NCBI RefSeq assembly: GCF_000719345.1
Contig: NZ_JOFX01000054.1
Span: 1 to 26,073 of the forward strand
DNA length: 26,073 bases
Direction: 5' to 3'
Origin: Streptomyces sp. NRRL F-2664
GTDB taxonomy: Bacteria > Actinomycetota > Actinomycetes > Streptomycetales > Streptomycetaceae
Positions 2,814 through 18,993 of this stretch are shown here, one piece after another. The translations under genes and the position numbers were made by a program. The notes beneath the pieces are model-generated. The model saw only the letters and a list, made by a program, of their open reading frames with translations, did no database searches and was not told the origin of the DNA. Position 1 is the stretch's first letter, and each line of letters opens with the position of its first letter.

Positions 2814-3258
2814 CCACTCCTGGGGGTCCGGGAGCACGCCGACTCCTGCTACCGCATGGGGTCCGTGGCACTGTCCCAGGGGCACCGGCAGCTGGCCGAG
2901 AACTGGCTGTGGAAGGCCGTGGAAGCCCCGTGGGATGCGAGAGCAATATCCGAGGTGTTCAAAAAGCTAAACCCGACCGATCACCCTGAAGGCTGGTCCG
3001 CTTCGCCGTCACCGTCCACTGCCATGTCCCTGCATACTCGGCGATGAGGCCCTGTACCCGTACTTGCGCTACCTCGTCCAAGCCGCCGCCGACTTCGGGC
3101 ACGGTGATGCTCAGTTGCTGCGCCCACTACTGCGAGACGCCTCCGCAGTCCTGGCGCCGTTTGACACCTGGGAGGACCCGGACTACGGACCGAGCTCGAG
3201 GCCGACCCCGATTGTCCTCCCCCTGCTTGACCACGACAAGGAAGAGGAAACCGGATGA
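2814..3258 (+). pseudogene. Broken hypothetical gene with Sel1/TPR-like helix pairs
   Basis: In one frame 2814-3000 encodes VREHADSCYRMGSVALSQGH then RQLAENWLWKAVEA and ISEVFKKL, which has the look of Sel1/TPR helices. A second frame from 3043 encodes DEALYPYLRYLVQAAADFGH, then DASAVLAPFDTWEDPDYGP, ending at TGA 3256-3258. A TAG (2811-2813) precedes the first part and a frameshift lies between about 3000 and 3043, so the gene is not intact. Its stop overlaps the ATG of the methyltransferase (ATGA, 3255-3258), so the two were once translationally coupled. The function is unknown and no catalytic motif is visible. Confidence 0.5.
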
Positions 3259-4454
3259 CCCATCTCGACACCGTCGGCCCCGAGGCCCTACGAGCCGACA
3301 TGGTGCAGGCCCTGCACGACCAGGACGCGATCACCTCCCAGTCGCTCACAGCCGCCTTCACCGCCGTCCCCCGCCACCTGTTCGCACCGGACATGCCTCT
3401 CGAACAGGCCTACGACCTGCACAGCATTATGCCTGTGAAGAAGGACGGCTACGGGCTCGACATCAGCGTCATCTCGGCTCCGCACCTGCAGGCGGTGATG
3501 CTGGAGCAGGCCGATATCGAGCCGGGCATGAGGGTGCTGGAGATCGGCTCCGGCGGCTACAACGCCGCCCTCATCCAGGAACTCGTCGGAGCCGATGGCG
3601 AGGTCACCAGTCTCGACATCGACCGTGACGTCATCGACCGCGCGCGCACGCACCTGGACGCCGCCGGGTATGGCCGGGTCAAGACGGTCGTGGCCGACGC
3701 CGAGAGCGCTGTCGTGCTCGGGCACTTCGACCGCATCATGGTCACGGTCTCCGCGTGGGACATCCCGCCGTCGTGGATCAGCGGACTCACCGCGAAGGGC
3801 CGACTCGTCGTCCCGCTCACCGTATGCGGCACCACCCGCTCGGTCGCCTTCGATCGCGACGGCGATTGCCTCGTCAGCCGCTCCTACCGGCTGGCCTCCT
3901 TCGTGCCCATGCAGGGTGAGGGAGCCGTCCCGGACCGCAAGGCCTTGCTGCTGGACGGCGTGGCCTTGCAGACCGATAACAAGAACGTCCCGCTTAATGC
4001 ACAAGCCCTGGCCCGAGCTCTGGAGGGCGACCGGCTGGAGGTGTGGTCGTGGGCCGCCTACGACCTGCCCGACGAGCTCGACTGGTTTCTCACCTTGAAC
4101 CTGCCGGCTCCCGCCCGCCTGCACGCCGCCCAGGACGTCATCGACAGCGGGCTCATGGAGCCGTCCGCCCGCCTCGGCGTGGCCGCCCTGGTCGACGATG
4201 ACAGCATCGCCTACCGCACCCGGCGCCCGAACAAGGACACCGGGACGGTCGGCTTCGAGAGCGGCGTCATCGCCCACGGCCCGCAGGCCGAAGCGCTCGC
4301 CGCCCAGTACGTCGAGCTCCTGCAGCAGTGGGCGACGGACCACCAGCGGCGGGGGGCGGCAACCATCCGGTACGTGCCGGGCGCCGCGCCGTCCCCGCTG
4401 CCCCCGGGCACGGCACGCAAGCGCCACGGCTACGTGTCGGTGACCTGGGCCTGA
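3255..4454 (+). CDS. fxlM: Methyltransferase, FxLD lanthipeptide system (PIMT-like)
   Basis: This is a 399-aa SAM-dependent methyltransferase of the family that accompanies FxLD lanthipeptide precursors. Related to protein L-isoaspartate O-methyltransferases, it shows the PIMT-like VPRHLFAP (residues 38-45), ISAPHLQAVMLE (73-84), SAM motif I VLEIGSGGYN (94-103) and the acidic LDID (120-123). A long C-terminal extension beyond the PIMT core (from about residue 220) is typical of these peptide-modifying enzymes. Known relatives methylate an Asp side chain of a RiPP, often leading to aspartimide; that activity is inferred here. The ATG overlaps the stop of the preceding broken gene, and the precursor gene starts 65 bases downstream. 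It looks complete, although its peptide substrate and partner dehydratase are broken. Confidence 0.85.
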   Translation: MTHLDTVGPEALRADMVQALHDQDAITSQSLTAAFTAVPRHLFAPDMPLEQAYDLHSIMPVKKDGYGLDISVISAPHLQAVMLEQADIEPGMRVLEIGSGGYNAALIQELVGADGEVTSLDIDRDVIDRARTHLDAAGYGRVKTVVADAESAVVLGHFDRIMVTVSAWDIPPSWISGLTAKGRLVVPLTVCGTTRSVAFDRDGDCLVSRSYRLASFVPMQGEGAVPDRKALLLDGVALQTDNKNVPLNAQALARALEGDRLEVWSWAAYDLPDELDWFLTLNLPAPARLHAAQDVIDSGLMEPSARLGVAALVDDDSIAYRTRRPNKDTGTVGFESGVIAHGPQAEALAAQYVELLQQWATDHQRRGAATIRYVPGAAPSPLPPGTARKRHGYVSVTWA

Positions 4455-4519
4455 CACTCCGGGGCCGACCGGCCCCGGGACATCGCACCATCCATCCACC
4501 ACTCCAAGGAGGGGACCCG

Positions 4520-4639
4520 ATGACGATTCAGATCGGCACGGCCACGACCCCGGCGACAACCGCCGAGCAGGACGACGCCGACTTCGACCTCGACATCACC
4601 ATCGTCGACCCCTGCCCGCCCCAGACGCACACCGCACGT
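4520..4639 (+). pseudogene. fxlA: FxLD-family lanthipeptide precursor, leader only, core lost
   Basis: A strong ribosome binding site (AAGGAGGGG, 4506-4514) precedes ATG 4520. The leader runs MTIQIGTATTPATTAEQ then DDADFDLDITIVD: the F-D-L-D motif at about residues 24-27 defines the family. A Cys/Thr-rich core should follow. Instead, from about 4637 the DNA encodes, in another frame, the N-terminal region of a LanB dehydratase. The original frame reads on into a Pro/Arg-rich tail until a stop at 4811-4813, which looks like out-of-frame translation and not a real core. The few Cys in that tail (CPCCATFC) come from out-of-frame dehydratase DNA. A deletion joining the precursor to the next gene is the simplest explanation. 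Confidence 0.7.
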
Positions 4640-5150
4640 GCTTGCCCGTGCTGCGCTACCTTCTGCGCGCCCGCGGGCGCGCCACCCCCTTCGGGCTGGT
4701 CGCCGGCGTCGCCGCCGCCCGCTACGGCCCCAATCCGGAACTACGGATCGGCACGAGCACCAGGCCGTCGCGGAGCCGGACGCCGCCGTCAACGCCCTCG
4801 TCGTCCGCCTTGAAGCACACCCCAGGCTGCGCACGGATTTGCTGCTGCTCACCTCCAGCCTCGGCCGCCCACCACACCCGGCGTCGAATCCGATCACATG
4901 CAGATCCGCCTGACAGGGCCTGTCCACGGCGCCGTGGAGGACGCGCGGACACCTATCCGGTGGAGCGAGCTCGCGGCGAACTTCGCCGCGGTCTGCCCCC
5001 GAGCGGAGCCCACCGCGGTAGACAACCTCCTCGCAGGCCTGGTCCAGCAACGCTTCCTCCTCCCCGGCCTACGGGCGCCGGGATCACCACCACCGACCCG
5101 GTGGCCGCGCTCCTCCCCCACGCCGCCAAGCACCTCCCCGACCAGGCCGC
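4637..5150 (+). pseudogene. Lantibiotic dehydratase (LanB-type) N-terminal remnant
   Basis: Four pieces in three frames line up in order with the N-terminal domain of class I lanthipeptide dehydratases. 4640-4750 gives LPVLRYLLRARGRATPFGL (the conserved R.TPFGL region). About 4750-4870 gives PDAAVNALVVRLEAHPRLR then TDLLLLTSS. About 4875-5078 gives ARTPIRWSELAANFAA and LLAGLVQQRFLLPGL. 5078-5150 gives TTTDPVAALLPHAAKHL. At least three frameshifts break it, the first several dozen codons are gone (fused to the precursor), and the rest of the roughly 1000-residue enzyme is replaced by a transposase fragment. An intact LanB would dehydrate Ser/Thr of the FxLD precursor using glutamyl-tRNA. Here the pathway is dead. 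Confidence 0.75.
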
Positions 5151-5476
5151 AGCCTCCTCGCGGACGCCGGCTGACAGGACTTGGCGCCCAGACGTGCGGC
5201 CAGGTCGTCATGCCACCACGCAAATCCAGAGGCAAGCACCTCGAGCACCTGCAATGGCTCATGGCCCGTCACGAAGCGGCCTGGTACGCCCACCGATCAG
5301 TAAGAATTCCGGTCGAACACGGCATCGCCCACATCAAGAACCGGCGAGTCCTCGAACGACACCACGGCCAACGCGAAACCCTGCCCGACACCATCCGAGC
5401 CGTCGCCGGACTCCGCCCTGACCGGCAAACAGCTCAGCCGTTCACCACCCGCGCACTGCCCGCCGGACGAGCGTGA
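5151..5476 (+). pseudogene. DDE transposase C-terminal fragment (IS5-like)
   Basis: From about 5151 the sequence resembles the C-terminal end of Streptomyces IS5-type (DDE_Tnp_4) transposases: SLLADAG, then after a stop and shift GLGAQTCGQVVMPPRKSRGK, and RIPVEHGIAHIKNRRVLERH followed by RETLPDTIRAVAGL, to TGA 5474-5476. The Glu in VEHGIAH is the last residue of the DDE triad. The N-terminal two thirds, with both catalytic Asp residues, are missing. The fragment directly abuts the truncated dehydratase, so an insertion or deletion involving this element probably removed the downstream lanthipeptide genes. Confidence 0.75.
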
Positions 5477-5530: not shown

Positions 5531-6868
5531 TTAGGCAGCCTTCAGCATGGGGAGTGCCCTGTCATACAGCTCGCGCCCATGGGCGTTCTTCCGGTGCGGT
5601 GCGATCGCGGAGAGCATGATGCGGATCCGATCGTCGCACCGGCCCGACTGGACGTTCGGGTAGTCGTCGAGGACCCGGTGCCAGTCCACGCATGCCTCTT
5701 CCAGGCGCCCCACAGCCAGCTTTCGCTCCGCCAGCATCGCGTTGTAGCGGACGCGGGTGCGGCGGTGGCCGGGTTCCCGCAGACGGTCCGCCATTTGCAG
5801 GGACTCGATGGAACCAGCGATGTCGCCCAGCTCGTACTGGACCTGCCCCACGTGGTAGTTCAGCGACGACGGGTCGTAGGAGCCGAACGCCTTCGCCCGG
5901 GACTCCGCCTTGTCCATCGCGACCTCGGCCTCCTTGATTTTGGCCAAGGCACCGGCCCGGTCCCCGGTCTGCGCTGCAGCGTGGGCGTGCTGCCCCATCA
6001 GGAACGCCACCGTCCTCGGCCCGGCCTGCGGGGAGGCGGATGCCGCCGCATCCGCCAGGCGCACCGCCAGCGGCCCGTGCCCGAGGTCAACAGCCTGGAC
6101 GCTCATCCCTCGCAAGGTCGTGCAGTAGGTCAGGTGGTCACCCGCCGCGCCCGCCAGCTCCAGAGCCTTCGTGTAGTACTGCTGAGCAAGGCCGTCTGCG
6201 CGCTCATCCATGGCCATGTACCCAGTTAGGTAGAGGTGATCGGATGCAGCGGACAGCATCGCCTTACGGACGCCATCCGAAGCGTCGGCCTTGAGGTAGG
6301 GCGCGATGATGTTGACAAGGAACGCTGCGGCTAGGGGGCGGGCCATCCGGCCGCCGAACGCGTCGTCGAGGCCGCTTATGTGCTCGGTCATCGCGATGAC
6401 GGCGTTCACCTCGGGCGTCCCGATCCGGGTGTGCGGGTCGGAGCGTAGCCGCTCGAACCGGTCAAGGACGTCCGGCCAGTCCGGGATCACTAAGGCCGCC
6501 GAGAAGAGTCCGGCACCCAGTACAGCCCTGCGTGATGGGTCCATATCAGCGCTCCCGAGATCGACCAATCCAGCCACCGTATCCGCAGGCGCCGGGGAAA
6601 GGTCGGGGGATTTCGTGAACCCCGCATCAAATGCGGTGACCGGCCGTGCGAGCTTGCGTGACAGGGCCTCCAGGATCAGCGGACGCACCGATTTGCGGGG
6701 CATCGTGCCCGATAACCAGTGCGGCACCGCCGACTCATCGTAGTAGGCCACCACGCCGATCTCGGCGCCCACGCGGCCGATGGCGCGGGTGAACTGTCCC
6801 CGCGACCAACCCGTTTCCGCGAAGAGTCTGGCAAGCCCGGTATTCGGTGTGCGTGTGCGTGCAGCCAT
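5531..6868 (-). CDS. XRE-family transcriptional regulator with TPR-like C-terminus
   Basis: This 445-aa protein carries an N-terminal helix-turn-helix (about residues 8-70, with LARLFAETGWSRGQFTRAIG and VPHWLSGTMP) and a long helical TPR-like region (about 150-440, for example DHLYLTGYMAMDERADGLAQ and NYHVGQVQYELGDIAGSIES). The architecture is that of the pleiotropic regulators found beside RiPP and secondary-metabolite genes in Streptomyces. I chose ATG 6868 over the upstream GTG/ATG at 6898 because a GGGGGGA motif lies six bases before it. It is transcribed divergently from the ATP-grasp RiPP genes across a 188-base spacer and is the obvious candidate for controlling them. The ligand and target site are not visible. 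The gene looks intact, unlike the similar remnant at 1-715. Confidence 0.8.
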   Translation of the reverse strand: MAARTRTPNTGLARLFAETGWSRGQFTRAIGRVGAEIGVVAYYDESAVPHWLSGTMPRKSVRPLILEALSRKLARPVTAFDAGFTKSPDLSPAPADTVAGLVDLGSADMDPSRRAVLGAGLFSAALVIPDWPDVLDRFERLRSDPHTRIGTPEVNAVIAMTEHISGLDDAFGGRMARPLAAAFLVNIIAPYLKADASDGVRKAMLSAASDHLYLTGYMAMDERADGLAQQYYTKALELAGAAGDHLTYCTTLRGMSVQAVDLGHGPLAVRLADAAASASPQAGPRTVAFLMGQHAHAAAQTGDRAGALAKIKEAEVAMDKAESRAKAFGSYDPSSLNYHVGQVQYELGDIAGSIESLQMADRLREPGHRRTRVRYNAMLAERKLAVGRLEEACVDWHRVLDDYPNVQSGRCDDRIRIMLSAIAPHRKNAHGRELYDRALPMLKAA

Positions 6869-6915
6869 GTGGTCCCCCCGAGCTTTCACGACGTTCACGG
6901 TCCAGCGCTACTCCA

Positions 6916-7056: not shown

Positions 7057-7458
7057 ATGACCCAACAGCCTCTCCCCCGCCGCCACCCGCTTACCCACCA
7101 GATGCAGGACCAACCGGAGTGTGCGCCCTGGGGTGACGCCTCCGACAGTCTGGACTCCAGCTCCACTCTCCTGGCCCTAGCCAAGAGCGATTGGGAAACA
7201 TGCCTACGACGCGTCGGCACTGACGAACCCGGCGACGAAAGCGAGGGACCAGTGAGCAAGCTCCCCTCTTGGCTGCACGAAGGGGCCCGCGTCCTGGACC
7301 CAGAGCGGGGATGCGAAGCGATCGTGCAGTTCATCGGCGAGTGGGAGGATCCGAAGACGCGCCGGATCAATCCGCAGGCCGTCTTCCTACGCCCCGAGGG
7401 TGGCGGAATCGAGTGGATCGCCGAACCCGGCGCCCTCCGACGCGCAGACGCCTGCTGA
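7057..7458 (+). CDS. Small hypothetical protein, first gene of the ATP-grasp RiPP operon
   Basis: This 133-aa protein has no signal peptide or membrane segment. ATG 7057 follows a GAGGA motif. An internal GTG at 7252 also has a good site (GAGGGA, 7243-7248), and the product from there (VSKLPSWLHEGARVLDPERG, EAIVQFIGEWEDPKTRRI, AVFLRPEGGGIEWIA) matches the better conserved part as I remember it from Streptomyces. The real protein may therefore be only 68 residues. The C-terminal half looks like a small beta-rich fold with a conserved VQF.G.WEDP...R motif. The gene lies 101 bases before tgmA in the same direction. No function is known to me; a role as an accessory or immunity-type protein in RiPP production is speculation. 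Confidence 0.65.
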   Translation: MTQQPLPRRHPLTHQMQDQPECAPWGDASDSLDSSSTLLALAKSDWETCLRRVGTDEPGDESEGPVSKLPSWLHEGARVLDPERGCEAIVQFIGEWEDPKTRRINPQAVFLRPEGGGIEWIAEPGALRRADAC

Positions 7459-7470
7459 CGCCTGCTGACG
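7445..7470 (+). repeat. Tandem direct repeat over a stop codon
   Basis: The 10-base unit GACGCCTGCT occurs twice in tandem (7445-7454, 7455-7464), followed by a partial third copy (7465-7470). It covers the last codons and stop of the preceding gene. It looks like a slippage duplication without obvious function. Confidence 0.7.
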
Positions 7471-7559
7471 CCCCCCAGACTCCCCGCCCACGTCTTCACA
7501 GGCGCTAGGTACGGGCGAGGTACACACCACCTACACATACTCATCTACAGGAGGACACC

Positions 7560-7778
7560 ATGCCAGCAGCCCCGCTCGTACCGTTCGGCGCCCGTGCCGA
7601 ACGCGTCCCGTACACGATCGAGGTGGACGGGTCTTCGTTCACCTATGACCGTCAGAGGCAGGTCAACATCACCAAGGACGGCGTCCTGCTGGCTCACACC
7701 AGCCTCGCCGCATCCTGCACAAACACCAACTGGGACTCGAAGAACGACGACACGTCCGACCCGTACATGATGCGATGA
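7560..7778 (+). CDS. tgmA: Putative ATP-grasp-modified RiPP precursor peptide
   Basis: This is a 72-aa precursor with an excellent ribosome binding site (AGGAGG, 7549-7554) five bases before ATG 7560. The leader carries PFGARAERV and the family signature YDRQRQVNI (about residues 30-38). The C-terminal core from about residue 52 is hydrophilic and rich in Thr, Ser, Asn, Asp and Lys: SCTNTNWDSKNDDTSDPYMM. In this family the partner ATP-grasp enzyme is thought to join side-chain carboxylates to Thr/Ser hydroxyls or Lys amines, and this core supplies four to five Asp donors plus Thr, Ser and Lys acceptors. The stop overlaps the start of tgmB by four bases (ATGA), so translation is coupled. The single Cys and the PYMMR tail look unusual for the family. 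Confidence 0.85.
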   Translation: MPAAPLVPFGARAERVPYTIEVDGSSFTYDRQRQVNITKDGVLLAHTSLAASCTNTNWDSKNDDTSDPYMMR

Positions 7779-8746
7779 CCCAGCGACTGGACGGCGGCGC
7801 GGTGCTAGTCGTCGCGAAGGAGATGGATCCGGCGGCCGACCTGGTCGTGGACGAGCTGTCCACCCTCCAGATGCCGGTGATGCGCTTCGACATGGGCGAC
7901 TTCCCGCAGGGAATCTCGCTCACCGCCGAGCACACCGTCGGTCCGTGGTCCGGGCCCCTGACCAATGACCTTCGCACCGTGCGGCTAGAGGGGGTGAGGG
8001 CCGTCTACTACCGGCGGCCCCGCCTCCCCTTAATCACCGACGCCATAGCCGAACCCCACTACACGTGGGCCGTTGATCAAGCCCTGGCCGGTCTCCTGGG
8101 CACCCTGTACGCCCTGCCCGTACTGTGGGTCAACCGCCCCGAGGTCGATGGGATCGCATCCCACAAGCCGGTCCAGCTCCCGGTAGCCGCCCGCAGTGGA
8201 CTGCGCACCCCGCGCTCTCTGGTCACTAACGTGCCGCAGGACGCCCGCGACTTCGCCGCAAGCATCAACGGACCGCTGATCTGCAAGCCCCTCATGGGCG
8301 GGCCTCTCAACTACGAGGACGGGCGCCGCAACGGCGTTCCCACCCACCTGATCAACCCTAACGACCTGGACCACTCCGTGGGCCTGACCGCGCACCTGTT
8401 CCAAGAGTGGATCCCGAAGGCACACGAAGTCCGCCTGACCGTGATCGGCCGGAAGATGTTCGCCGCCGAAATCCACGCGGGCAGCGACGCCTCCCGGATC
8501 GACTGGCGCTCCGACTACGACTCCTTGACCTACAAGCCATGCGAGGTTCCCGACGCAGTCAGGGCCGGGGTCCTACGCTGGCTGGACCACTTCGGCCTCA
8601 ACTTCGGAGCCTTTGACTTCGCCGTCACCCCGGATGGGGAATGGGTGTTCTTCGAATGCAACCCGTCTGGAGAGTGGTCCTGGATACAGAACAAGACCGG
8701 CTTACCCATCGCCCGCGCCCTCGCCGAACTTCTCGCCGGAGGTTAA
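7775..8746 (+). CDS. tgmB: ATP-grasp ribosomal peptide maturase
   Basis: This 323-aa cytosolic ligase shows all expected ATP-grasp elements. These are an N-terminal pre-ATP-grasp domain with the VRAVYYRRPRLP stretch (residues 74-85), ASHKPVQLPVAARSGLRTP (128-146), nucleotide-binding Lys in ICKPLMGG (169-176), FQEWIPKAHEVRLTVIG (209-225), and the metal-binding Asp of FDF (280-282) with ECNPSGEW (294-301). This C-terminal pattern is characteristic of the graspetide-type peptide ligases (microviridin/MvdD-like). It should activate Asp/Glu carboxylates of TgmA as acyl phosphates and form macrocyclic esters or amides. It has no ribosome binding site of its own and relies on the ATGA overlap with tgmA. 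The next gene starts two bases after its stop. Confidence 0.9.
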   Translation: MTQRLDGGAVLVVAKEMDPAADLVVDELSTLQMPVMRFDMGDFPQGISLTAEHTVGPWSGPLTNDLRTVRLEGVRAVYYRRPRLPLITDAIAEPHYTWAVDQALAGLLGTLYALPVLWVNRPEVDGIASHKPVQLPVAARSGLRTPRSLVTNVPQDARDFAASINGPLICKPLMGGPLNYEDGRRNGVPTHLINPNDLDHSVGLTAHLFQEWIPKAHEVRLTVIGRKMFAAEIHAGSDASRIDWRSDYDSLTYKPCEVPDAVRAGVLRWLDHFGLNFGAFDFAVTPDGEWVFFECNPSGEWSWIQNKTGLPIARALAELLAGG

Positions 8747-8748
8747 CC

Positions 8749-9840
8749 ATGACCGTGGACAGCGCCGAGGCCCGCGCTCTGCGGATCCAACTGGCCGATA
8801 TCCTTCAGGAAAAAGGAGACCTTACCGATCCGGAATGGCGCCGCGCCTTCGAGACTGTGCCCCGACACGCGTTCGTCCCCGCCTTCTGGGACAGTCCGGA
8901 GGAGCTCGTCAGCCTCGACAACTGTGGACACCTGGCCCGCATCTACAGCGACGACGTGCTGATCACGCAGATCACGGATGGCGTGGCCACCTCCTCTTCG
9001 ACCGCACCCAGTCTCATGCTCGTGATGCTGGAGGCCTTGGACGTACGCCCGCATCACCGAGTCCTAGAGGTGGCCACCGCCACCGGATACAACGCCGCGT
9101 TGCTGTGTGAGCGCGTCGGCTCTCACCACGTGACCACGATCGAGGTGGACCCGGAGCTTTCCCACACAGCGGAACGCCGCCTATTCGAGGCGGGCTACAC
9201 GCCCACCGTGATCGCCGCCGACGGACGGGCGGGGTACTGGGAGAAAGCCCCGTACGACCGGCTGATCGCCACCTGCGGCTTCTCCGCGGTCCCGTACACA
9301 TGGGTGAAACAGATGCGGCCCGGAGGCGTCATCGTGTGCCCGGTGGGCTCCGGCACTGTCCGCTTGGTCGTGAGCGAGGCTGGCGAAGCCGCAGGCAATT
9401 TCCTGTCCACAGCGTCGTACTTCATGACCGCCCGCGACTCGGGCACCGCCGGCTCCGCGCCGTACCCCGGCGATCCCGAGAACCCCGACCACCGCCCGAC
9501 CGCACTCGGACCCGCAGCCCCATTTACGAAGGACGGATTCCCCTTCCTGCTATCTCTGACGATTCCGGGCGTGGCTCTCTCCTCCGAGCCTGACGACACA
9601 GGCCAGGTCACCGGCTGCCGCCTGTGGGCCGCCGACGGCTCATGGGCCCGCATCAGCGACGGAACGGCATACCAGGCAGGCCCTCGCAGACTGTGGGATC
9701 TCGCTGAAGGAGCCCACGACACCTACCAGAAAAACGGCCAACCGAACCGCGAACGCTTCGGCCTCACAGTCTCTGTCGGCGGCAATACCGTCTGGCTGGA
9801 CGACCCCGGCAACATCATCAGGAGCCTCCCCCCAGCCTGA
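8749..9840 (+). CDS. tgmC: ATP-grasp peptide maturase system methyltransferase (PIMT-like)
   Basis: This is a 363-aa SAM-dependent methyltransferase. ATG 8749 has GGAGG (8738-8742) six bases ahead, within the end of tgmB, so I reject the in-frame extension to 8641. Visible motifs are VPRHAFVP (37-44), a PIMT-like SSSTAPSLMLVMLE stretch (82-95), SAM motif I LEVATATGYN (106-115) and the acidic IEVDPE at about 132. The C-terminal region of about 150 residues is specific to the RiPP-associated branch. Known relatives in other graspetide clusters methylate an Asp of the cross-linked peptide, which then closes to an aspartimide. The same chemistry on the Asp-rich TgmA core is inferred. It is the last gene of the operon and is followed by a strong hairpin. 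Confidence 0.88.
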   Translation: MTVDSAEARALRIQLADILQEKGDLTDPEWRRAFETVPRHAFVPAFWDSPEELVSLDNCGHLARIYSDDVLITQITDGVATSSSTAPSLMLVMLEALDVRPHHRVLEVATATGYNAALLCERVGSHHVTTIEVDPELSHTAERRLFEAGYTPTVIAADGRAGYWEKAPYDRLIATCGFSAVPYTWVKQMRPGGVIVCPVGSGTVRLVVSEAGEAAGNFLSTASYFMTARDSGTAGSAPYPGDPENPDHRPTALGPAAPFTKDGFPFLLSLTIPGVALSSEPDDTGQVTGCRLWAADGSWARISDGTAYQAGPRRLWDLAEGAHDTYQKNGQPNRERFGLTVSVGGNTVWLDDPGNIIRSLPPA

Positions 9841-9852
9841 CCCCGTGGACCA

Positions 9853-9888
9853 CCGCCCCCTACTCCGAAGTCCAGGAGGAGGGGGCGG
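9853..9888 (+). terminator. Hairpin terminator after tgmC
   Basis: CCGCCCCCT (9853-9861) pairs with AGGGGGCGG (9880-9888). After one mismatch the stem continues with CTCC/GGAG (9863-9866 with 9875-9878), closing an eight-base loop. It starts 12 bases after the tgmC stop. There is no T tail, which is usual for actinomycete hairpin terminators. Confidence 0.65.
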
Positions 9889-10907: not shown

Positions 10908-11492
10908 GTGATAACAGCACACCGGCACGACACCCGCGCCACACGATTACGCATGCTCCTCACCGCCGCCGCGCTCGCGACAACGGTTGCGGTTGTCACC
11001 GTCGGCTGCACGAAGGAGAACCAGGCTGCTCCACCGCCTAGCCCGACCGCGTCACTTACCCCCTCGACCGATGTGCAGGCCGCCGAGAAGGACGCACTCC
11101 TCGGCGTATACAGAGCCTTCTGGGACGCCCAGCTGAAGGTGTACATGAGTGGCTCGATGAAGGACACCGGCATTGAGAAGGTTGCTGGCGACAAGGCCTA
11201 CTCCAAAATCCAGACGACCCGCGCCTATTACGTGGACAACGGCTCGATCATGAAGGGTGAGCCCATCCTGTCCCCCACGGTCAGCGCTTTGGACATGACG
11301 GAGACGCCCGCCGCTGGAACCATCACCGACTGCGTTGATACCACCGGATACATCCAGGTGATCAAGGAGTCGGGTCGGCCGGTCGAAACGCTCAGTAGCA
11401 AACGACGACACCTCAGCACCTACACCGCACTCAAGATCGCCGGAGCGTGGCAGATCCGCGACCTTGAGATCGACCGGGACCGCACATGCTGA
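10908..11492 (+). CDS. Putative lipoprotein, first gene of the Tad operon
   Basis: This 194-aa exported protein starts at GTG 10908, with GGGGG (10896-10900) seven bases upstream. The longer frame from ATG 10866 lacks such a site. The N-terminus has Arg residues (RHDTRATRLR), a hydrophobic stretch (MLLTAAALATTVAVVTV) and a lipobox-like TVGC with Cys34, followed by a flexible Pro/Ser/Thr linker (about residues 41-55). The rest (ALLGVYRAFWDAQLKVYM, TRAYYVDNGSIMKGEPIL, ALKIAGAWQIRDLEID) looks like a small NTF2/SnoaL-like fold, a guess from its pattern. The stop overlaps the next start, tying it to the Tad genes. Its role there is unknown. Confidence 0.75.
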   Translation: MITAHRHDTRATRLRMLLTAAALATTVAVVTVGCTKENQAAPPPSPTASLTPSTDVQAAEKDALLGVYRAFWDAQLKVYMSGSMKDTGIEKVAGDKAYSKIQTTRAYYVDNGSIMKGEPILSPTVSALDMTETPAAGTITDCVDTTGYIQVIKESGRPVETLSSKRRHLSTYTALKIAGAWQIRDLEIDRDRTC

Positions 11493-12415
11493 CCATGCGT
11501 CGCATCCTGGTGGTGACAGGAGCTCTGCTCTCTCTCCTTGTAACGCAGCCAGCGGCCATAGCCGACCCCGGACCCGGCACGGAATGCCCCCCGCTCGTCT
11601 TTGACTGTGACGTCCGCTCTGGCGGCACCAAGCCGCCGAAGCCAGAGAAGCTCGGAGGAGGGGGCGGCGGAGGTGGGGGTAGTTCCGTCAATTGCATGGC
11701 TCGGGACGGTTCAGGCGGGACGTTTGAGGTGCCCTGTTACGACAAGGAGTCGGGCTGGTTCGACGCGTCAAGTTCCTGCTACTGGCAACTGCTGGAGCCG
11801 CAGCCACCTGCGGAGGACCCGGTGTGGGTCGGCCGTTCGCCTGGGGATGGGGCGGTCTACAACGGGCAGTGTCCCGGACAGCCGCTTGCTGGCGGCTTCC
11901 GGTGGTTCCAGAGCCCTCCTCCCGGTTTCGGGGGCGGCCCGAACCTGGAGGCTCTGGCGCAGGAGGCGGTCACGAAGATGCGGCTGCTGGGTGCGGACAT
12001 CGGGATCGCTCCGAGGCTGGGTGGTACGGGGACGGTCGGGGTGCCGGTGTGGGTGTGGAACGGGCCGAGTCCGCAGACGACCGGACCGACGTCGGCCAGT
12101 GCGACTGCGCTCGGGGTGACAGTGACCGCCACGGCGACCGTGCAGGACGTCGTGTGGAACTTCGGCAACGGCACCAGCGTGTCCTGCCCGTTCCCCGGCA
12201 CCCCCTACAGCCCGTCGTTCGGACTGACTCCGCCCAGCCGGGCCAGCGGCCAGTGCGGCATCGCCGGATACTCACGTGTCGGTGAGTATCCGGTGACCGC
12301 GACGACGACGTGGGCCGTGCACTGGGCCGGGGGCGGCCAGCAGGGCGATCTGACCACGACGCGCAGTTCGCAGGCCGCGGTGCGCATCGGAGAACTCCAG
12401 GTCGTCGGCCAGTAG
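11486..12415 (+). CDS. Secreted protein of the Tad locus with poly-Gly linker and PKD-like end
   Basis: This 309-aa protein has a Sec signal peptide (MRRILVVTGALLSLLVTQPA, likely cleaved after AIADP or nearby). A charged Pro/Lys linker leads into nine consecutive Gly (about residues 57-65), then a Cys-containing middle domain (VNCMARDGSGGTFEVPCYD, SCYWQLLEP, NGQCPGQPL) and a C-terminal beta-rich stretch with VVWNFGNGTSVSC and GEYPVTATTTWAVHW that resembles a PKD/Ig-like domain. Such proteins precede cpaB in many Streptomyces Tad loci and are often mislabelled as ATP/GTP-binding; I see no nucleotide-binding motif. ATG 11486 has GGGA at the right distance and overlaps the stop of the lipoprotein. 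It is probably an extracellular component or cargo of the pilus system. Confidence 0.75.
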   Translation: MLTMRRILVVTGALLSLLVTQPAAIADPGPGTECPPLVFDCDVRSGGTKPPKPEKLGGGGGGGGGSSVNCMARDGSGGTFEVPCYDKESGWFDASSSCYWQLLEPQPPAEDPVWVGRSPGDGAVYNGQCPGQPLAGGFRWFQSPPPGFGGGPNLEALAQEAVTKMRLLGADIGIAPRLGGTGTVGVPVWVWNGPSPQTTGPTSASATALGVTVTATATVQDVVWNFGNGTSVSCPFPGTPYSPSFGLTPPSRASGQCGIAGYSRVGEYPVTATTTWAVHWAGGGQQGDLTTTRSSQAAVRIGELQVVGQ

Positions 12416-12459
12416 GCCCTATGACCGCACTTCCCTTCCCCTCTCAGGAGGCAGAGCAC

Positions 12460-13179
12460 GTGAGTACGACTACCACGCCCGTGACGCCGGGCCAGGCCGC
12501 CGTACCGGCGCCCGGCGGCCCTGGCGGGCAGCCGGCGGCAGCCCCCCGCGTGGTCCGCCAGCGCCGTCGGCGCCCAGGGCTGACCGCCCTGTCCGTGGCC
12601 CTGATCGCGGCCGGCGGGCTGTCCGGCGCGCTGCTGTTCACCGCTTCCGGCCAGCGCACCGCCGTCCTGGTCGTGGCACGCGACGTGCCGGTGGGTGCCG
12701 CGGTCACCGACGCCGACCTGGCCCCCGCATCGCTGGCGCTGGACCCGGCCGTCAAGGCCGTCCCCGTCACGAAGAAGAAGTCCGTCGTCGGGCAGCGCGC
12801 CGCAGTCGCCCTGAAGACCGGTGCGCTGCTGTCCCCGGAGCACGTCACGTCGGTGTCGCTGGTGAAGGCCGGTGAGCAGCTGGTGGGTGTGGCGTTGAAG
12901 CCGTCGCAGCTGCCGGCGAGCCGGCTCGCGCCGGGCCAGAAAGTGCTGATCGTCTCCACCCCGGACAGCCCCCAGGCGGTGGGCGGGGCGAAGCCGGCTG
13001 AGCCGGCTGGTGCGCCGAAGACGGTGGCGGCGAGCGTGGTTGCGGTGGGGGCGGCCGCGCCGGCGACGGGCGTTGTGGTGGTGGATGTGGCGGTGCCGGC
13101 GACCGACGGGCCGGCGTTGGCCGCGCGGGTGGCGACCGGTGCTGTCGCGTTGATCCTGGCGCCTCAGGAGGCCGGCTGA
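12460..13179 (+). CDS. cpaB: CpaB/RcpC-like pilus assembly protein with SAF domain
   Basis: This 239-aa protein starts at GTG 12460, behind AGGAGG (12446-12451). The in-frame ATG 12421 has no such site. The order is a Pro/Ala-rich cytoplasmic tail ending in RQRRRRPG, one membrane helix (about residues 41-62), a SAF domain (about 66-130: AVLVVARDVPVGAAVTDADL, VVGQRAAVALKTGALLSPEH), then a beta-rich extracytoplasmic part with a Pro/Ala-rich insertion. CpaB proteins line or assemble the periplasmic channel of Tad pili. In a Gram-positive cell the role is probably at the outer membrane face or in the wall. The TGA shares its A with the ATG of the next gene. Confidence 0.85.
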   Translation: MSTTTTPVTPGQAAVPAPGGPGGQPAAAPRVVRQRRRRPGLTALSVALIAAGGLSGALLFTASGQRTAVLVVARDVPVGAAVTDADLAPASLALDPAVKAVPVTKKKSVVGQRAAVALKTGALLSPEHVTSVSLVKAGEQLVGVALKPSQLPASRLAPGQKVLIVSTPDSPQAVGGAKPAEPAGAPKTVAASVVAVGAAAPATGVVVVDVAVPATDGPALAARVATGAVALILAPQEAG

Positions 13180-13997
13180 TGGCGGTTGTCGCGCTGGCCG
13201 GCGGGCTGGGGGCTCCTGGGGTGACTACGGCCGCCATGGCGCTGCTGGTGACGTGGCCGCTCGCGGAGGGGCACCGCGTGATACTGGCCGAGGCCGACCC
13301 GGACGGCGGGGCGATCCTTCCCGGTGCGCTCCAGGGCACGCTGGGCAACACGCACGGTCTGCGGAATCTGGCGATCGCGGCTCGTCAGGGCCAGCTGGTC
13401 GAGGCGTTCTGGCGTCAGCTGGTCGATGTGACCGACGCAGGCAGCCGGGACCGGCTGGTGCTGCCCGGCCTCTACGACCCCGCGCACGCCTCCGCGATGG
13501 AGCCGGTGTGGCAGCCGCTGGCGCGCCTGTTCACCGGGATCGGGGTGCACGGGCACGACGTCCTGGTGGACTTGGGCCGGCGCGGTGCGTTCGGTCCTTC
13601 GGCGGTTCTGGCGCAGCGGGCTGACGTCGTCCTGGTGGTCGCGCGCTCCACGCTGCGCAGCCTGCAGAGCGCCCAGGTGCGGCTCGAAGCTCTGCGTGAG
13701 AGCGTCGGGGGCAGCGTCGAGGTGGGCATGCTGCTCGTCGACGAGGGGCCTTTCTCCAAGGAGGAGGTCCGCAAGACGCTGGGCGTACCGGTCACGGCTG
13801 TCCTGCCGTGGCAGCCCAAAGAGGCGAAGGTGCTCTCCGACGGGGCCGAGCAGCCCCGCCGGTTCGAGTCCGGGGCGCTGATGCGCTCCGCGCGGTCCGC
13901 CGCGGTGCGGGTGCGGGAGCTGGTGGAGGTCCGGCGTTCCCGGCTCGCCCCACCGCCCGGGCCGGTCGAGGGGCGGGTGGTCAGCCATGCGCGCTAG
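13179..13997 (+). CDS. ParA/CpaE-like ATPase of the Tad locus, atypical Walker A
   Basis: This 272-aa protein has a MinD/ParA-type N-terminus, VVALAGGLGAPGVTTAA (residues 3-19), and the Asp-containing EADPDGGAILPG (38-49), a Walker A' match. In place of the deviant Walker A KGGxGKT it reads AGGLGAPGVTT: both the signature Lys and the P-loop Lys are absent. A central VLVDLGRRG and VVLVVARSTL match the Walker B strands of the family. CpaE proteins place the Tad machine at the pole in other bacteria. Position between cpaB and cpaF fits that role, but nucleotide hydrolysis is doubtful. The end overlaps the cpaF start by 11 bases. Confidence 0.8.
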   Translation: MAVVALAGGLGAPGVTTAAMALLVTWPLAEGHRVILAEADPDGGAILPGALQGTLGNTHGLRNLAIAARQGQLVEAFWRQLVDVTDAGSRDRLVLPGLYDPAHASAMEPVWQPLARLFTGIGVHGHDVLVDLGRRGAFGPSAVLAQRADVVLVVARSTLRSLQSAQVRLEALRESVGGSVEVGMLLVDEGPFSKEEVRKTLGVPVTAVLPWQPKEAKVLSDGAEQPRRFESGALMRSARSAAVRVRELVEVRRSRLAPPPGPVEGRVVSHAR

Positions 13998-15525
13998 CCC
14001 TCTGCACGGTGACCCGCAGGTCGCCGCAGGCACGTTGCAGGCCCGCCTCGCCGCTCCCCGCCCGGTCCCGGTCGGGGCGCCTGCGGCCCCGCTGGCGTCG
14101 GCGGATCCCCGGGCCGCGCTGGCCCCTGCAGCCCCGGCGTCGGTGGTGCTGACGATGGACTACGCGGCGGTCCGCCTGATCAAGAAGGAGGTCGGGGATC
14201 GCCTCACCGATCTGCTGCGGGCCCGGCCGGGGATGAGCGCGGCCGCGCAGGAGCAGCAGGGCCGGCACCTGATCAACGAGCAGGTGGCGGTGTGGTCGGA
14301 CGCGGAGGCCGTCAAGCGCGGCGCAGCCACCAGCCCCGCCGAGGACGCCGCGATCGCGCAGGCCGTGTTCGACCTGCAGTTCCGGGCTGGCCGGCTCCAG
14401 CAGCACCTGGACAACGCGGCCGTGGAGAACATCTTCATCAACGGGTACGCCGATGTGTGGCTGGACTTCGCCGACGGCCGCCGCATCCAGGTCGCACCGG
14501 TCGCGGACTCCGACGAGGAGCTGCGCGAACTGTTGCGGGACCTGGCCCGGCGTACGACCGGACAGGCTGAGAGGAGCCTGTCGACGGCGGACCCGTTCCT
14601 GGCTTTGCGGCTGTCGGACGGATCCCGTCTGCAGGCCGTCATCGACGTGACTCCTGGCACCTACGTCACGATCCGCCGGCACAGCATGCGCCACGCCGAC
14701 CTGCCGGAACTGGTGGACCGGGGCATGCTCGACTCCACCCTGGAGGCGTTCTTGCGCGCGTGCGTGCGTGCGGAGAAGAACGTGATGATCGCGGGCGGGC
14801 AGGCAGCGGGGAAGACAAGCCTGCTGCGCGCCCTGCTGCGGGAGATCGACCCCGACGAGCGGTTCGCCACCCTGGAGACCGAGTACGAGCTGTTTGCCCA
14901 CGAGAACGGCCACCACCGGCAGGTCGTGCCGATGGAGGCCCGCGAGTCCAACGGCGAGATGGTAGCCGGGCAGGCGGCCGGTGAGATCACGCTCATGGAC
15001 CTGATGTACCGGGCCCTGCGCATGACGCTGACCCGGATCGTGGTGGGTGAGGTCCGCGGACCTGAGATCGTCGCGATGCTCCAAGCCATGACCAACGGTG
15101 CGGGCGGGAACCTGTGCACGCTGCACGCCATCCACCCGTCGGTGGTTTTCGACCGGATCGCCGAGCTGTACCTCCTCGCGCAGGCCAACATGAGCGAGGT
15201 GCTCGCCTACCGGCAGGCCGCCAATGGGCTGCACTTCATCGTGTTCGTCTCCTCCATCGACGAGACGAGGATCGGAGGTCACCGCCACCGGTTCGTCTCC
15301 CACGTCCTCGAGGTCACCGGCATCGGTGAAGGAGGCCGGCCGGAGACGAACGCGATCTTCGGGCCGCGACCGGAGTGGGGCGAGCTGCGGGCGATACCGC
15401 TCATGCACCCCCGCTGCATCAACGACCTGCGCCGCGCCGGATTCGACGCCGGCCTGCTGAACGTCCCGAGCGGGGCCTGGCCCGCAGCCCTGCCCCTCCT
15501 CGTCGACGAGGGAGCCGCCCTGTGA
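13987..15525 (+). CDS. cpaF: CpaF/TadA-type secretion ATPase
   Basis: This is a 512-aa type II/IV secretion ATPase. After a Pro/Ala-rich tail (1-55) come the N-terminal domain (LDNAAVENIFINGYADVWLD, 141-160) and the RecA-like core: Walker A GGQAAGKTS (270-278), Asp-box-like FATLETEYEL (293-302), Walker B RIVVGEVRGPE (350-360, catalytic Glu355) and His box GGNLCTLHA (373-381). The Walker A has QAAG where most members have TGSG, a mild variant that keeps Lys and Thr. It would be the cytoplasmic hexameric motor powering pilin extrusion through TadB/TadC. The stop overlaps the tadB GTG (GTGA, 15522-15525). Confidence 0.92.
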   Translation: MRASPLHGDPQVAAGTLQARLAAPRPVPVGAPAAPLASADPRAALAPAAPASVVLTMDYAAVRLIKKEVGDRLTDLLRARPGMSAAAQEQQGRHLINEQVAVWSDAEAVKRGAATSPAEDAAIAQAVFDLQFRAGRLQQHLDNAAVENIFINGYADVWLDFADGRRIQVAPVADSDEELRELLRDLARRTTGQAERSLSTADPFLALRLSDGSRLQAVIDVTPGTYVTIRRHSMRHADLPELVDRGMLDSTLEAFLRACVRAEKNVMIAGGQAAGKTSLLRALLREIDPDERFATLETEYELFAHENGHHRQVVPMEARESNGEMVAGQAAGEITLMDLMYRALRMTLTRIVVGEVRGPEIVAMLQAMTNGAGGNLCTLHAIHPSVVFDRIAELYLLAQANMSEVLAYRQAANGLHFIVFVSSIDETRIGGHRHRFVSHVLEVTGIGEGGRPETNAIFGPRPEWGELRAIPLMHPRCINDLRRAGFDAGLLNVPSGAWPAALPLLVDEGAAL

Positions 15526-16457
15526 CCACGCTGCTGATGTGGGTGGTGACCGGACTCGCCCTCGCGGGCGGACTGGTAGGGCTGGTGACCGGGATCGTGG
15601 GCACCACCGCACCCCAGGGCCCGACGATCGCCGCGCGGCTTCGGGCGGGCCGGCAGCTGGCCGGCCGGGACGAGCGAATGGCCCGCCGTACCCGGCTGGC
15701 CGGCGGCGCTGTGGCCGCGGTGGTGCTGTGGCTGGTGACCGGGGTGTTCGTAGCCGGGGCGCTGGTGTTCCTGGCCGTGATCGGGGTGCCGTGGCTGCTC
15801 GCGCCCACCAAGTCCGCGACGACCCGGATCGGGAAGCTGGAGGCGCTGGGCGACTGGACCCAGCGCCTGGCCAACGTGCTCCGTCTCGGCCGCGGCCTGG
15901 ACGAGGCGCTGCGGATCTCCCGCAAGGGCTGCCCCGAGGACATCGCCGACGAGGTCGGCGACCTGGTCGACCGGCTTCACGTCGGCTGGCGCCCGGCCGA
16001 TGCGCTGCGCCTGTTCGGCGACGCACTGAACGACGTGACCGCGGACAAGGTCGTGGCCGCGCTCGTGCTGTCGGCCGCCGACCGCGGTCCCGGCCTGGCG
16101 CAGGCGTTGGATGACCTCGCCGAGTCGGTGCACGAGGAGGTCGCCCGAAGGCGGGCGATCGAGGCGGACCGGGCCAAGCCGCGTACGACGATGCGGTGGA
16201 TGACCATCATCACCCTGGCCGTGATCGGCCTCGGCTTCCTCATCCCCTCCTACACCGCCCCCTACGGGACGGTGCTCGGCCAGCTGGTCCTCGCCGTCCT
16301 CTCGGCCGGCTTCGTGGGTGTGCTGGCGCTGATGCGGCAGATCGCCGACGCCAAGCCGGTCCCCCGCTTCCTGGTCGCCGACCCGCGCAGCGCCGTCACC
16401 CCGCCCGCCGCGGCCGCCGATCCTGCCGGGCACGAGAGCGCGGAGGTGCTGGCATGA
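15522..16457 (+). CDS. tadB: TadB-like inner-membrane platform protein (T2SSF)
   Basis: This is a 311-aa membrane protein. Two N-terminal helices (about residues 3-28 and 62-88), a cytoplasmic T2SSF domain (LEALGDWTQRLANVLRLGRG, DEALRISRKGCPEDIADEVG, ESVHEEVARRRAIEADRAKP) and two C-terminal helices (about 228-245 and 253-277) give the standard GspF/TadB layout. The start is GTG 15522, overlapping the cpaF stop. There is no separate ribosome binding site, so translation is coupled. It forms the membrane platform with TadC on which the CpaF ATPase acts. The ATGA overlap continues into tadC. Confidence 0.88.
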   Translation: MTTLLMWVVTGLALAGGLVGLVTGIVGTTAPQGPTIAARLRAGRQLAGRDERMARRTRLAGGAVAAVVLWLVTGVFVAGALVFLAVIGVPWLLAPTKSATTRIGKLEALGDWTQRLANVLRLGRGLDEALRISRKGCPEDIADEVGDLVDRLHVGWRPADALRLFGDALNDVTADKVVAALVLSAADRGPGLAQALDDLAESVHEEVARRRAIEADRAKPRTTMRWMTIITLAVIGLGFLIPSYTAPYGTVLGQLVLAVLSAGFVGVLALMRQIADAKPVPRFLVADPRSAVTPPAAAADPAGHESAEVLA

Positions 16458-17335
16458 TGCCCGTGGCCGCGATCCTGTCCGGGGCGGCGATCGGCGCCGG
16501 CGCAGCCCTGCTGATCCGCGAAGTCCTGCGCCCGGCTCCCGCCCTCGGCCCGGCGCTGCGCCGTCTCAACCAGCCCGCCCCACCCCGTAGCGGCGATGCG
16601 GGAGCCGACCGGGACGAGCGGTGGGGACAGTGGCTGGTCGAGCACCTCACCGACGTCCCCGGCGTACGGATCCCCCACAAGGATCTCGTACTGGCCGGCA
16701 CCACCCCGGCAAAGTTCATGCTCACCAAGGTCGCCCTCGCGGTCGGCGGTCTGCTGCTGCCCCCGCTGTCGACGATCCCGCTGCTGCTGCTCGGCCTGCC
16801 CCTGTACCTGCCCGCCATCGTCGGCATCCTCGCCGCAGTGCTGCTCTGGTTCACGCCCGACCTGGCGCTGCGGGACAAGGCCAAGCGGGCCCGCGCGGAG
16901 TTCGCGCACGCCATGGCTGCCTACCTTGACCTGGTCGCGCTGCGCCGGGCCGGGAACGTCTCGGCCGAGCAGGCCATGGAACAGGCCGCGCAGACCGGCC
17001 AGGGCTGGGCGTTCGTCCGCATCCAGCAGGCCCTGGCCCGCTCGCGGGTGGACAAGGTCCCCCACTGGGAGTCCCTGGCCCGCCTCACCGCCGAACTCGA
17101 CCTGCCCGTCCTGGACGACCTCGCCGCGATCATGCGGCAGTCCGCCGACGACGGCGCCTCCGTCTACGCCACCCTGCGCTCCCGGGCGAAGAACCTGCGC
17201 ACCGAGCTCCTCACCGCGCAGGCGACCGAAGCCAACGCCGACAGCGAGAAGATGACCGCCCCCGGCGCGCTCCTCGCTGTCCTGGTGATGCTCCTGATCG
17301 CCTTCCCCGCCATCATCCGCATGCTCAGCACCTGA
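16454..17335 (+). CDS. tadC: TadC-like inner-membrane platform protein (T2SSF)
   Basis: This is a 293-aa protein. It has an N-terminal hydrophobic segment (about residues 4-22), two adjacent helices (about 91-135, very Leu-rich), a T2SSF cytoplasmic domain (EFAHAMAAYLDLVALRRAGN, ESLARLTAELDLPVLDDLAA, RSRAKNLRTELLTAQATEAN) and a C-terminal helix ending FPAIIRMLST. ATG 16454 overlaps the stop of tadB (ATGA). Pairing of TadB and TadC is the rule in Tad systems. Confidence 0.88.
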   Translation: MMPVAAILSGAAIGAGAALLIREVLRPAPALGPALRRLNQPAPPRSGDAGADRDERWGQWLVEHLTDVPGVRIPHKDLVLAGTTPAKFMLTKVALAVGGLLLPPLSTIPLLLLGLPLYLPAIVGILAAVLLWFTPDLALRDKAKRARAEFAHAMAAYLDLVALRRAGNVSAEQAMEQAAQTGQGWAFVRIQQALARSRVDKVPHWESLARLTAELDLPVLDDLAAIMRQSADDGASVYATLRSRAKNLRTELLTAQATEANADSEKMTAPGALLAVLVMLLIAFPAIIRMLST

Positions 17336-17355
17336 CCCGAAAGGGGCAACACGCC

Positions 17356-17571
17356 ATGCTGAACAAGATCGCCGCCCGTGCCACGAATGCCGCCCACTGC
17401 GCTGTGCGCTGGTACAAGTCCCGCCTGGAGCAGGGCGGCCCGGCCGACCGGGGCGACATCTCCATCACCACGATCATCATCTGGGTCGCCGCGGTGGCCG
17501 GCGCGATCGCCATCGCCGGGACCATCGCGGTGGTCATCGGCCGCTACAACACCACCCTCTCCGGCATCTGA
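17356..17571 (+). CDS. 71-aa pilin-like membrane peptide
   Basis: A small protein starts at ATG 17356, preceded by AAAGGGG about ten bases upstream. A basic N-terminal half (ARATNAAHCAVRWYKSRLEQ) leads to ADRGDISITTIIIWVAAV and one long hydrophobic helix to the end. The G-D before the hydrophobic segment could be a prepilin-type cleavage site, but it lacks the Glu at +5 and the Glu-Tyr of classical Flp pilins. Its position straight after tadC, where other Tad loci encode the major pilin, makes it the best pilin candidate in the window. Without a match to the Flp motif this remains an inference. Confidence 0.7.
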   Translation: MLNKIAARATNAAHCAVRWYKSRLEQGGPADRGDISITTIIIWVAAVAGAIAIAGTIAVVIGRYNTTLSGI

Positions 17572-17615
17572 CCGCGCCAAAGACGGATACCAGGGTGTGC
17601 GGGGGAAGGAGGAAC

Positions 17616-18514: not shown

Positions 18515-18518
18515 CGCC

Positions 18519-18968: not shown

Positions 18969-18993
18969 GGCGCCGATCGAGAAGGACCCGAAC

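What the first reader, a model, noticed from the sequence alone, without database searches (positions are those of the whole stretch)
7057..9840. Intact four-gene ATP-grasp RiPP operon with divergent XRE regulator
tgmA, tgmB and tgmC overlap or abut, which fixes their cooperation. The precursor core SCTNTNWDSKNDDTSDPYMM holds several Asp plus Thr, Ser and Lys, ideal for side-chain ester/amide cross-links and an aspartimide. A Cys in the core and the PYMMR tail are uncommon for the family as I know it. The product is likely undescribed.
Basis: partly seen in the sequence, partly recalled or inferred. Interest (0 to 1): 0.75.

Follow-up and report, generated by a model that had tools for sequence, protein, structure and literature searches.

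The report
A graspetide peptide gene cluster
Three genes in a Streptomyces-like genome should make a small, internally cross-linked peptide of a known family; its core is almost identical in relatives, and the third enzyme carries an unusual change where it should bind its methyl donor.

Summary
The core observation holds. tgmA (7560-7778), tgmB (7775-8746) and tgmC (8749-9840) encode a precursor, an ATP-grasp ligase and a PIMT-like methyltransferase of the known group 13 graspetides (graspimiditides); it is the only TIGR04187 locus found in this genome. The precursor is typical of its subgroup: of 27 sequences (window included) 26 keep Cys53, all 27 keep SxTNTNWDS, and 21 have the C-terminal Arg, so neither Cys nor tail is odd there. 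Over 120 precursors of four sister core types, hydroxyl residues stand at 52, 54 and 56, Asp at 59 (119), an acid pair near 63/64 (119) and D-x-[YW] at 67-69. This suggests a stem-loop with two or three nested Ser/Thr-Asp esters and methylation at Asp59; Lys61 is not conserved. Corrections: the "fourth gene" (7057-7458) has no homologue at 52 related loci and instead accompanies regulators beside other genes, AmcB-type cyclophane genes in 5 of 14 places. The divergent regulator is an NsdA-family TPR protein; such regulators recur beside graspetide genes but are not universal. TgmC has Ala where 51 of 51 other loci have Gly in SAM motif I, so the aspartimide step may be impaired here. New member of a known kind.

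The parts
7560..7778 (+). tgmA, 72-aa graspetide precursor
   Evidence: TIGR04186 22.9 bits, cut-off 25; 26 relatives at E <= 2e-19
7560..7712 (+). leader, residues 1-51; PFGARAER recognition-like motif at residues 8-15
   Evidence: P8, F9 and R12 invariant in 13 diverse precursors; RPFG is the key leader motif of ThfA (PMC13003496, passages); the Arg before PFG is absent here
7713..7766 (+). conserved core, residues 52-69, SCTNTNWDSKNDDTSDPY
7767..7775 (+). C-terminal tail MMR, variable in relatives and absent in two sister core types
7775..8746 (+). tgmB, ATP-grasp peptide ligase (macrocyclase)
   Evidence: TIGR04187 377.7 bits; aligns to solved graspetide ligases 9bou, 5ig9, 7mgv; invariant columns incl. 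K171, D281, N296 in 15 sequences
8749..9840 (+). tgmC, PIMT-like peptide aspartyl O-methyltransferase with C-terminal extension
   Evidence: TIGR04188 331.3 bits, PCMT; model pLDDT 85.0, best fold match TmPIMT 1dl5 over 357-359 columns
9079..9081 (+). codon of TgmC residue 111, Ala in SAM motif I where relatives have Gly
   Evidence: 51 of 51 other loci matched by the pattern have Gly
5531..6898 (-). divergent NsdA-family TPR regulator, candidate regulator of the cluster
   Evidence: NF053720 412.5 bits; all-helical model with TPR matches; 61% homologue divergent from tgmB/tgmC in L180
7057..7458 (+). 133-aa ORF, regulator-linked small protein; probably not part of the graspetide pathway
   Evidence: absent from 52 tgm loci; present beside regulators elsewhere
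9853..9888 (+). inverted repeat, 14-base arms 93% complementary, 12 bases after the tgmC stop; possible terminator without a T run
   Evidence: not reported by the terminator scan

Best explanation
tgmABC is a group 13 graspetide (graspimiditide) cluster. TgmB binds the TgmA leader (PFG motif), activates core Asp side chains with ATP and joins them to Ser/Thr hydroxyls across a hairpin: innermost Thr56 to the Asp63/64 pair, then Thr54, and possibly Ser52, outward to Asp67, giving two or three nested omega-esters (-36 or -54 Da). TgmC then methylates Asp59 in the loop, which closes to an aspartimide and reopens mostly to isoAsp. The tail after Tyr69 is probably trimmed or of no account, and the leader is cut by a protease coded elsewhere. 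Shown: genes, homology, conservation pattern. Inferred: links, order, site, trimming. In this strain TgmC may be weakened by Ala111, so the product may stay at the ester-only stage.
For: Family assignments; relatives of the ligase with solved structures; near-fixed core in 27 precursors; 120 of 120 precursors with Ser/Thr at 52, 54 and 56, 119 with Asp59, 119 with an adjacent acid pair, and a variable distance between Asp59 and that pair (7 residues from 60 to 66 in 113, 10 in the 7 of type IV) as expected for a loop; a further core type with longer loops keeps the same positions. Residue 60 is Gly in 67 and Ser in 53 of 120; the four characterised members all have Gly after the methylated Asp, and Ser is named as possible (PMC13001092, parts 1-2 of 5 read). 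Esters are nested Thr-Asp stem-loops in characterised members. TgmC model matches TmPIMT with its C-terminal domain, as described for RiPP enzymes (PMC10787088, parts 1-3 of 5 read).
Against: No chemistry is shown. TgmA and TgmC score below their NCBIfam cut-offs. The 120 precursors were found with a profile that itself holds these residues, and the core pattern used to read them demanded S/T/D at 54 and S/T at 56, though only 1 of 121 (P0028, whose C-terminal part is unrelated) failed it. Natural members lack one of the proposed acceptors: P0024 has Gly63, L015 Asn64, L018 Ala67 with its leader lost. One of 120 has Val at 59. Ala111 in TgmC speaks against the aspartimide step here. Lower nonsynonymous change in core than leader is not significant: 0.155 (0.036-0.332) against 0.321 (0.189-0.489) in 15 sequences.
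Confidence: 0.85

Rival explanations
1. The cluster is decaying in this strain: TgmB still cyclises TgmA, but TgmC no longer binds SAM well, so a plain graspetide without aspartimide or isoAsp is made, or nothing is.
For: Ala111 in SAM motif I against Gly in 51 of 51 other loci; TgmC differs from 11 relatives at five positions where they all agree, TgmB at one against 14; the neighbourhood holds an IS110 transposase and a lantibiotic dehydratase piece; relatives with damaged precursors exist (L003 and L018 frames lack the PFG leader).
Against: All three frames are open and closely packed; the core is unchanged; the TgmC fold is predicted well, though such models do not feel single substitutions. 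A sequencing error in a draft genome of 672 contigs is not excluded.
Confidence: 0.3
2. All four genes and the regulator form one dedicated unit, with the 133-aa protein a needed partner.
For: Same strand and only 101 bases between 7458 and 7560; one report deals with partner-protein-dependent graspetides (PMC13097080, passages only); NsdA-family regulators lie near tgmB in 7 of 52 loci at E <= 1e-4 and divergent from tgmB/tgmC in L180 (61% identity).
Against: No homologue of the 133-aa ORF in 52 tgm loci nor in L180; homologues sit beside regulators with no tgm gene among the called ORFs of 14 stretches, 5 of them with AmcB. Partner proteins of other graspetides were not compared with it.
Confidence: 0.08
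3. Cys53 is an acyl acceptor: TgmB makes a thioester, or the thiol later opens the aspartimide.
For: Cys53 is kept in 26 of 27 of the subgroup.
Against: The position is Thr (36), Ser (29) or Glu (7) in 72 of 120 wider relatives and Ser in P0017; residues 52, 54 and 56 are the constant hydroxyl positions.
Confidence: 0.04

Closest known systems
Group 13 graspetides / graspimiditides: fuscimiditide, amycolimiditide, albusimiditide, SsfA(BM)
   Same: Precursor, ATP-grasp ligase and PIMT-like methyltransferase side by side; PFG-type leader; Thr and Asp on two sides of a loop that holds a conserved Asp
   Different: The four characterised members have Gly after the modified Asp, here Ser; the core sequence, Cys53 and donor spacing (52, 54, 56) are its own; no Arg before PFG; TgmC motif I Gly replaced
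SAV_5884-type systems of NCBIfam (TIGR04186/TIGR04187/TIGR04188)
   Same: TgmB above its cut-off; TgmA and TgmC match
   Different: TgmA 22.9 of 25 bits and TgmC 331 of 380 bits fall below the cut-offs
Microviridin ligases MdnC/MvdC/MvdD
   Same: ATP-grasp fold and catalytic motifs
   Different: TIGR04184 and TIGR04185 score far below their cut-offs; no Lys-amide donor conserved
Pamtides / imiditides
   Same: Related methyltransferase (PMC10787088)
   Different: There the methyltransferase acts alone, without an ATP-grasp enzyme

Membership tests
Group 13 graspetide (graspimiditide) | ATP-grasp macrocyclase of the actinobacterial RiPP branch | tested here: met
   TIGR04187 377.7 bits, cut-off 350
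Group 13 graspetide (graspimiditide) | Adjacent PIMT-like methyltransferase with C-terminal domain | tested here: met
   PCMT 101 bits; best fold match 1dl5 including the C-terminal part; TIGR04188 below cut-off
Group 13 graspetide (graspimiditide) | Precursor with conserved PFG leader motif | tested here: met
   PFGARAER; P, F and R invariant in 13 precursors; the Arg of RPFG is absent
Group 13 graspetide (graspimiditide) | Core with Ser/Thr donors and Asp acceptors on two sides of a loop with a conserved Asp | tested here: met
   120 precursors
Group 13 graspetide (graspimiditide) | Omega-ester links made by the ligase | not testable with these tools
   needs mass spectrometry or NMR
Group 13 graspetide (graspimiditide) | Working SAM site and aspartimide formation | tested here: inconclusive
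   Ala111 in motif I, Gly in 51 of 51 other loci
Dedicated four-gene operon including ORF 7057-7458 | Fourth gene kept next to tgmABC in relatives | tested here: not met
   0 of 52 loci, 0 of 1 in L180
XRE regulator | XRE/Cro-type HTH domain match | tested here: inconclusive
   No Pfam HTH match; NsdA family by NCBIfam; helices 20-83 could form an HTH
RRNPP-type peptide receptor | HTH plus TPR fold that binds a peptide made next door | tested here: inconclusive
   TPR fold matches, first LGN/Pins, Rap at ranks 18, 28 and 47 with TM-score 0.40-0.44; binding not testable

The most novel reading that the evidence does not exclude
The near-fixed, thiol-bearing, two- or three-ring graspetide is a signal rather than a weapon: it is read by the divergent TPR regulator, an RRNPP-like peptide receptor with a modified, macrocyclic ligand in actinomycetes. 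The recurrence of TPR or other HTH regulators divergent from graspetide genes, and the sharing of the regulator plus small-protein pair with cyclophane-peptide genes, would then mark a common control module for RiPPs.
Probability: 0.08. Interest if true: 0.75.

Novelty: new member of a known kind. Interest (0 to 1): 0.35.

Why it matters
No biological role is known for graspimiditides; the 2026 review calls linking them to function the bigger challenge (PMC13001092, passage). A core kept almost letter for letter in 27 precursors of Streptomyces, Kitasatospora and unnamed relatives, next to changing regulators, gives a single molecule to make and test, with an Asp-Ser methylation site that the characterised members lack and a natural TgmC variant to probe whether the imide matters.

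Tried and rejected
Lys61 amide link: rejected, Lys in only 21 of 27. Thr65 as donor: not conserved, Ser/Thr at that place in 30 of 120. Paralogous ligases: TIGR04187 gives 1 match in the genome. Viewing the regulator as unrelated to graspetides: I held this, because 23 of 24 regulator homologues other than the window had no TgmB match within about 1.5 kb; following the one exception (L115) showed a 61% homologue divergent from tgmB (35%) and tgmC (35%), so that view was dropped. Signal by a strong sigma-70 promoter: 0 found. First core/leader ratio had misaligned leaders for L003 and L018, and the second held the window twice; one search replaces both. A script failed on its last item. Rfam and tRNA scans: nothing. 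An FxLD lanthipeptide precursor in the genome: none over the cut-off, best 16.4 bits of 30. Text searches for tgmA/tgmB (0 papers), AmcB with cyclophane (0).

Full report
What is there. tgmA, tgmB and tgmC are three closely packed genes. TgmB is over the NCBIfam cut-off for TIGR04187 (377.7 of 350 bits); TgmC (331.3 of 380) and TgmA (22.9 of 25) match their families but fall below the cut-offs. TgmB aligns over almost its whole length to solved graspetide ligases, best 9bou at E 6e-48, and TgmC to PIMTs. A model of TgmC (pLDDT 85.0, 12 sequences) matches T. maritima PIMT 1dl5 over 357-359 columns, i.e. with the extra C-terminal domain, as reported for RiPP-associated PIMTs (PMC10787088, parts 1-3 of 5). 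The genome holds one TIGR04187 match.

The precursor. A search of 5.8 billion proteins gave 28 hits including the window; one (P0028) shares only the leader and was set aside. In the remaining 27, positions 52 and 54-60 read S-TNTNWDS without exception, 53 is Cys in 26, 61 is Lys in 21, Thr in 5 and Gln in 1. DNA-level constraint in 15 sequences is stronger in the core (pN/pS 0.155) than in the leader (0.321), but the bootstrap ranges overlap. A search with a profile of diverse relatives gave 133 proteins, of which the best 120 were listed and read. They fall into four core types by my rule: I (27, the window's), II (62), III (24) and IV (7). All 120 have Ser/Thr at 52, 54 and 56; 119 have Asp59; 119 have two adjacent acids before D-x-[YW]; residue 60 is Gly in 67 and Ser in 53; residue 53 is Cys in 48, Thr in 36, Ser in 29 and Glu in 7. 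The profile contains these residues, so the hits lean to them. Types III and IV end at the aromatic residue in 30 of 31 sequences, so the MMR tail of the window is dispensable in principle; L071 keeps a type I core with no tail. Loci with yet other loops (L016, L062-L064, L070) keep the same positions. L081-L083 are more distant and lack the acid at 64.

Mechanism. In characterised graspimiditides, nested Thr-Asp esters form a stem and the methylated Asp lies in the loop (PMC12291112 passages; PMC13001092 parts 1-2). The constant positions here map on that plan: donors 52, 54 and 56, acceptors 63/64 and 67, loop Asp59. Two or three links are possible; natural sequences that lack one acceptor exist (P0024, L015; L018 also lacks its leader), so three is a guess. 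TgmC should act on Asp59, with Ser instead of Gly after it.

A warning on TgmC. In a pattern scan of all loci held, 52 motif I stretches were found; the window alone has Ala at the third place of (G/A)TGTG, and 51 of 51 others have Gly (several species occur twice). The window differs from 11 aligned relatives at five sites where they all agree, against one such site in TgmB with 14 relatives. Draft-assembly error is not excluded.

The regulator and the fourth gene. The divergent gene is an NsdA-family TPR protein (412.5 bits), one of 12 matches over the cut-off at 11 places in this genome (two adjoining matches counted as one), and all 150 Streptomyces-genus genomes searched have some homologue. 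Its model (pLDDT 79.2, pTM 0.65, 9 sequences) is all-helical and matches TPR proteins, with Rap receptors among weaker hits. NsdA-like matches occur near tgmB in 7 of 52 loci, from 22 to 66% identity and in one case over only 51 residues, all on the opposite strand 1.1-3.8 kb upstream. Of 24 regulator homologues other than the window (L103-L126), 1 has a TgmB match within the flank held; that locus (L180) shows the regulator at 61% divergent from tgmB (35%) and tgmC (35%) and, by eye, a different precursor. Among 16 loci with 70-75% identical TgmB, 15 have a regulator of one of four families within the upstream DNA (12 divergent, 3 in the same direction; the sixteenth, L013, holds 1.2 kb), by a simple ORF caller; Pfam confirmed an HTH in 7 of the 8 regulators scanned. 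Publications report XRE/DUF397-DUF5753 and HATPase genes beside such clusters (passages of PMC13097080, and PMC8939145). So a regulator upstream is usual, its kind is not fixed.

The 133-aa ORF has homologues in 41 of 392 genus genomes at E <= 1e-3, usually matching its C-terminal half; its N-terminal half resembles a separate small ORF next door in L167 (E 9e-5). In 14 stretches around the stronger places, from 12 genomes, it lies near various regulators; 5 carry AmcB homologues (one split over two ORFs), and none of the called ORFs matches TgmB or TgmC. The AmcB name rests on one protein, L171, with NF041718 at 443.4 of 425 bits. The two regulators 75-76% identical to the window's (L172, L177) both have this ORF divergent from them; L172 has the AmcB genes and L177 a remnant. 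No trace of AmcB was found in the window. The window thus joins a regulator/small-protein pair seen elsewhere with cyclophane-peptide genes to a graspetide cluster.

Novelty. Group 13 is a described family with more than a thousand clusters in surveys (PMC13001092). I found no print of this core (full text of open papers only, no figures or supplements; not held). It is a new member of a known kind. Frequency: precursor match in 7 of 199 genus genomes, of which 3 (G000, G091, G196) have the type I core; 40 of 394 family genomes with the profile, the weaker ones doubtful; 11 of 394 in the class draw, which shares five genomes with the former.

Noticed in passing
3255-5476: A second PIMT-like gene, FxLD-system methyltransferase TIGR04364 (490.9 bits, cut-off 320), and a 192-aa ORF matching only positions 141-200 of 649 of Lant_dehydr_N: remnant of an FxLD lanthipeptide cluster beside the graspetide cluster; no FxLD precursor over the cut-off in the genome.
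   Followed up: partly
838-2082: IS110-family transposase.
   Followed up: no
11486-22233: Flp/Tad-type pilus genes: SAF domain, T2SSE, T2SSF (two), TadE (three ORFs), LysM protein.
   Followed up: no
23403-26060: Large minus-strand protein with RHS repeats.
   Followed up: no
L165, L166, L170-L172: AmcB-type clusters with precursor-like ORFs holding repeats of FDNRPTWDN, a pentapeptide-repeat protein and a 239-aa protein of no family, next to homologues of ORF 7057-7458.
   Followed up: partly
L003 and L018, upstream of tgmB: Frames with the type I core but without the PFG leader: the precursor genes look damaged.
   Followed up: no
L179 (genome contig C2): Another PIMT-like match (266.7 bits to TIGR04188) beside what by eye looks like a von Willebrand-type and zinc-ribbon protein cluster, perhaps the FHA-VWA clusters of PMC10787088.
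   Followed up: partly
7057-7458: The 133-aa ORF looks like a fusion of two small ORFs that L167 encodes separately.
   Followed up: partly
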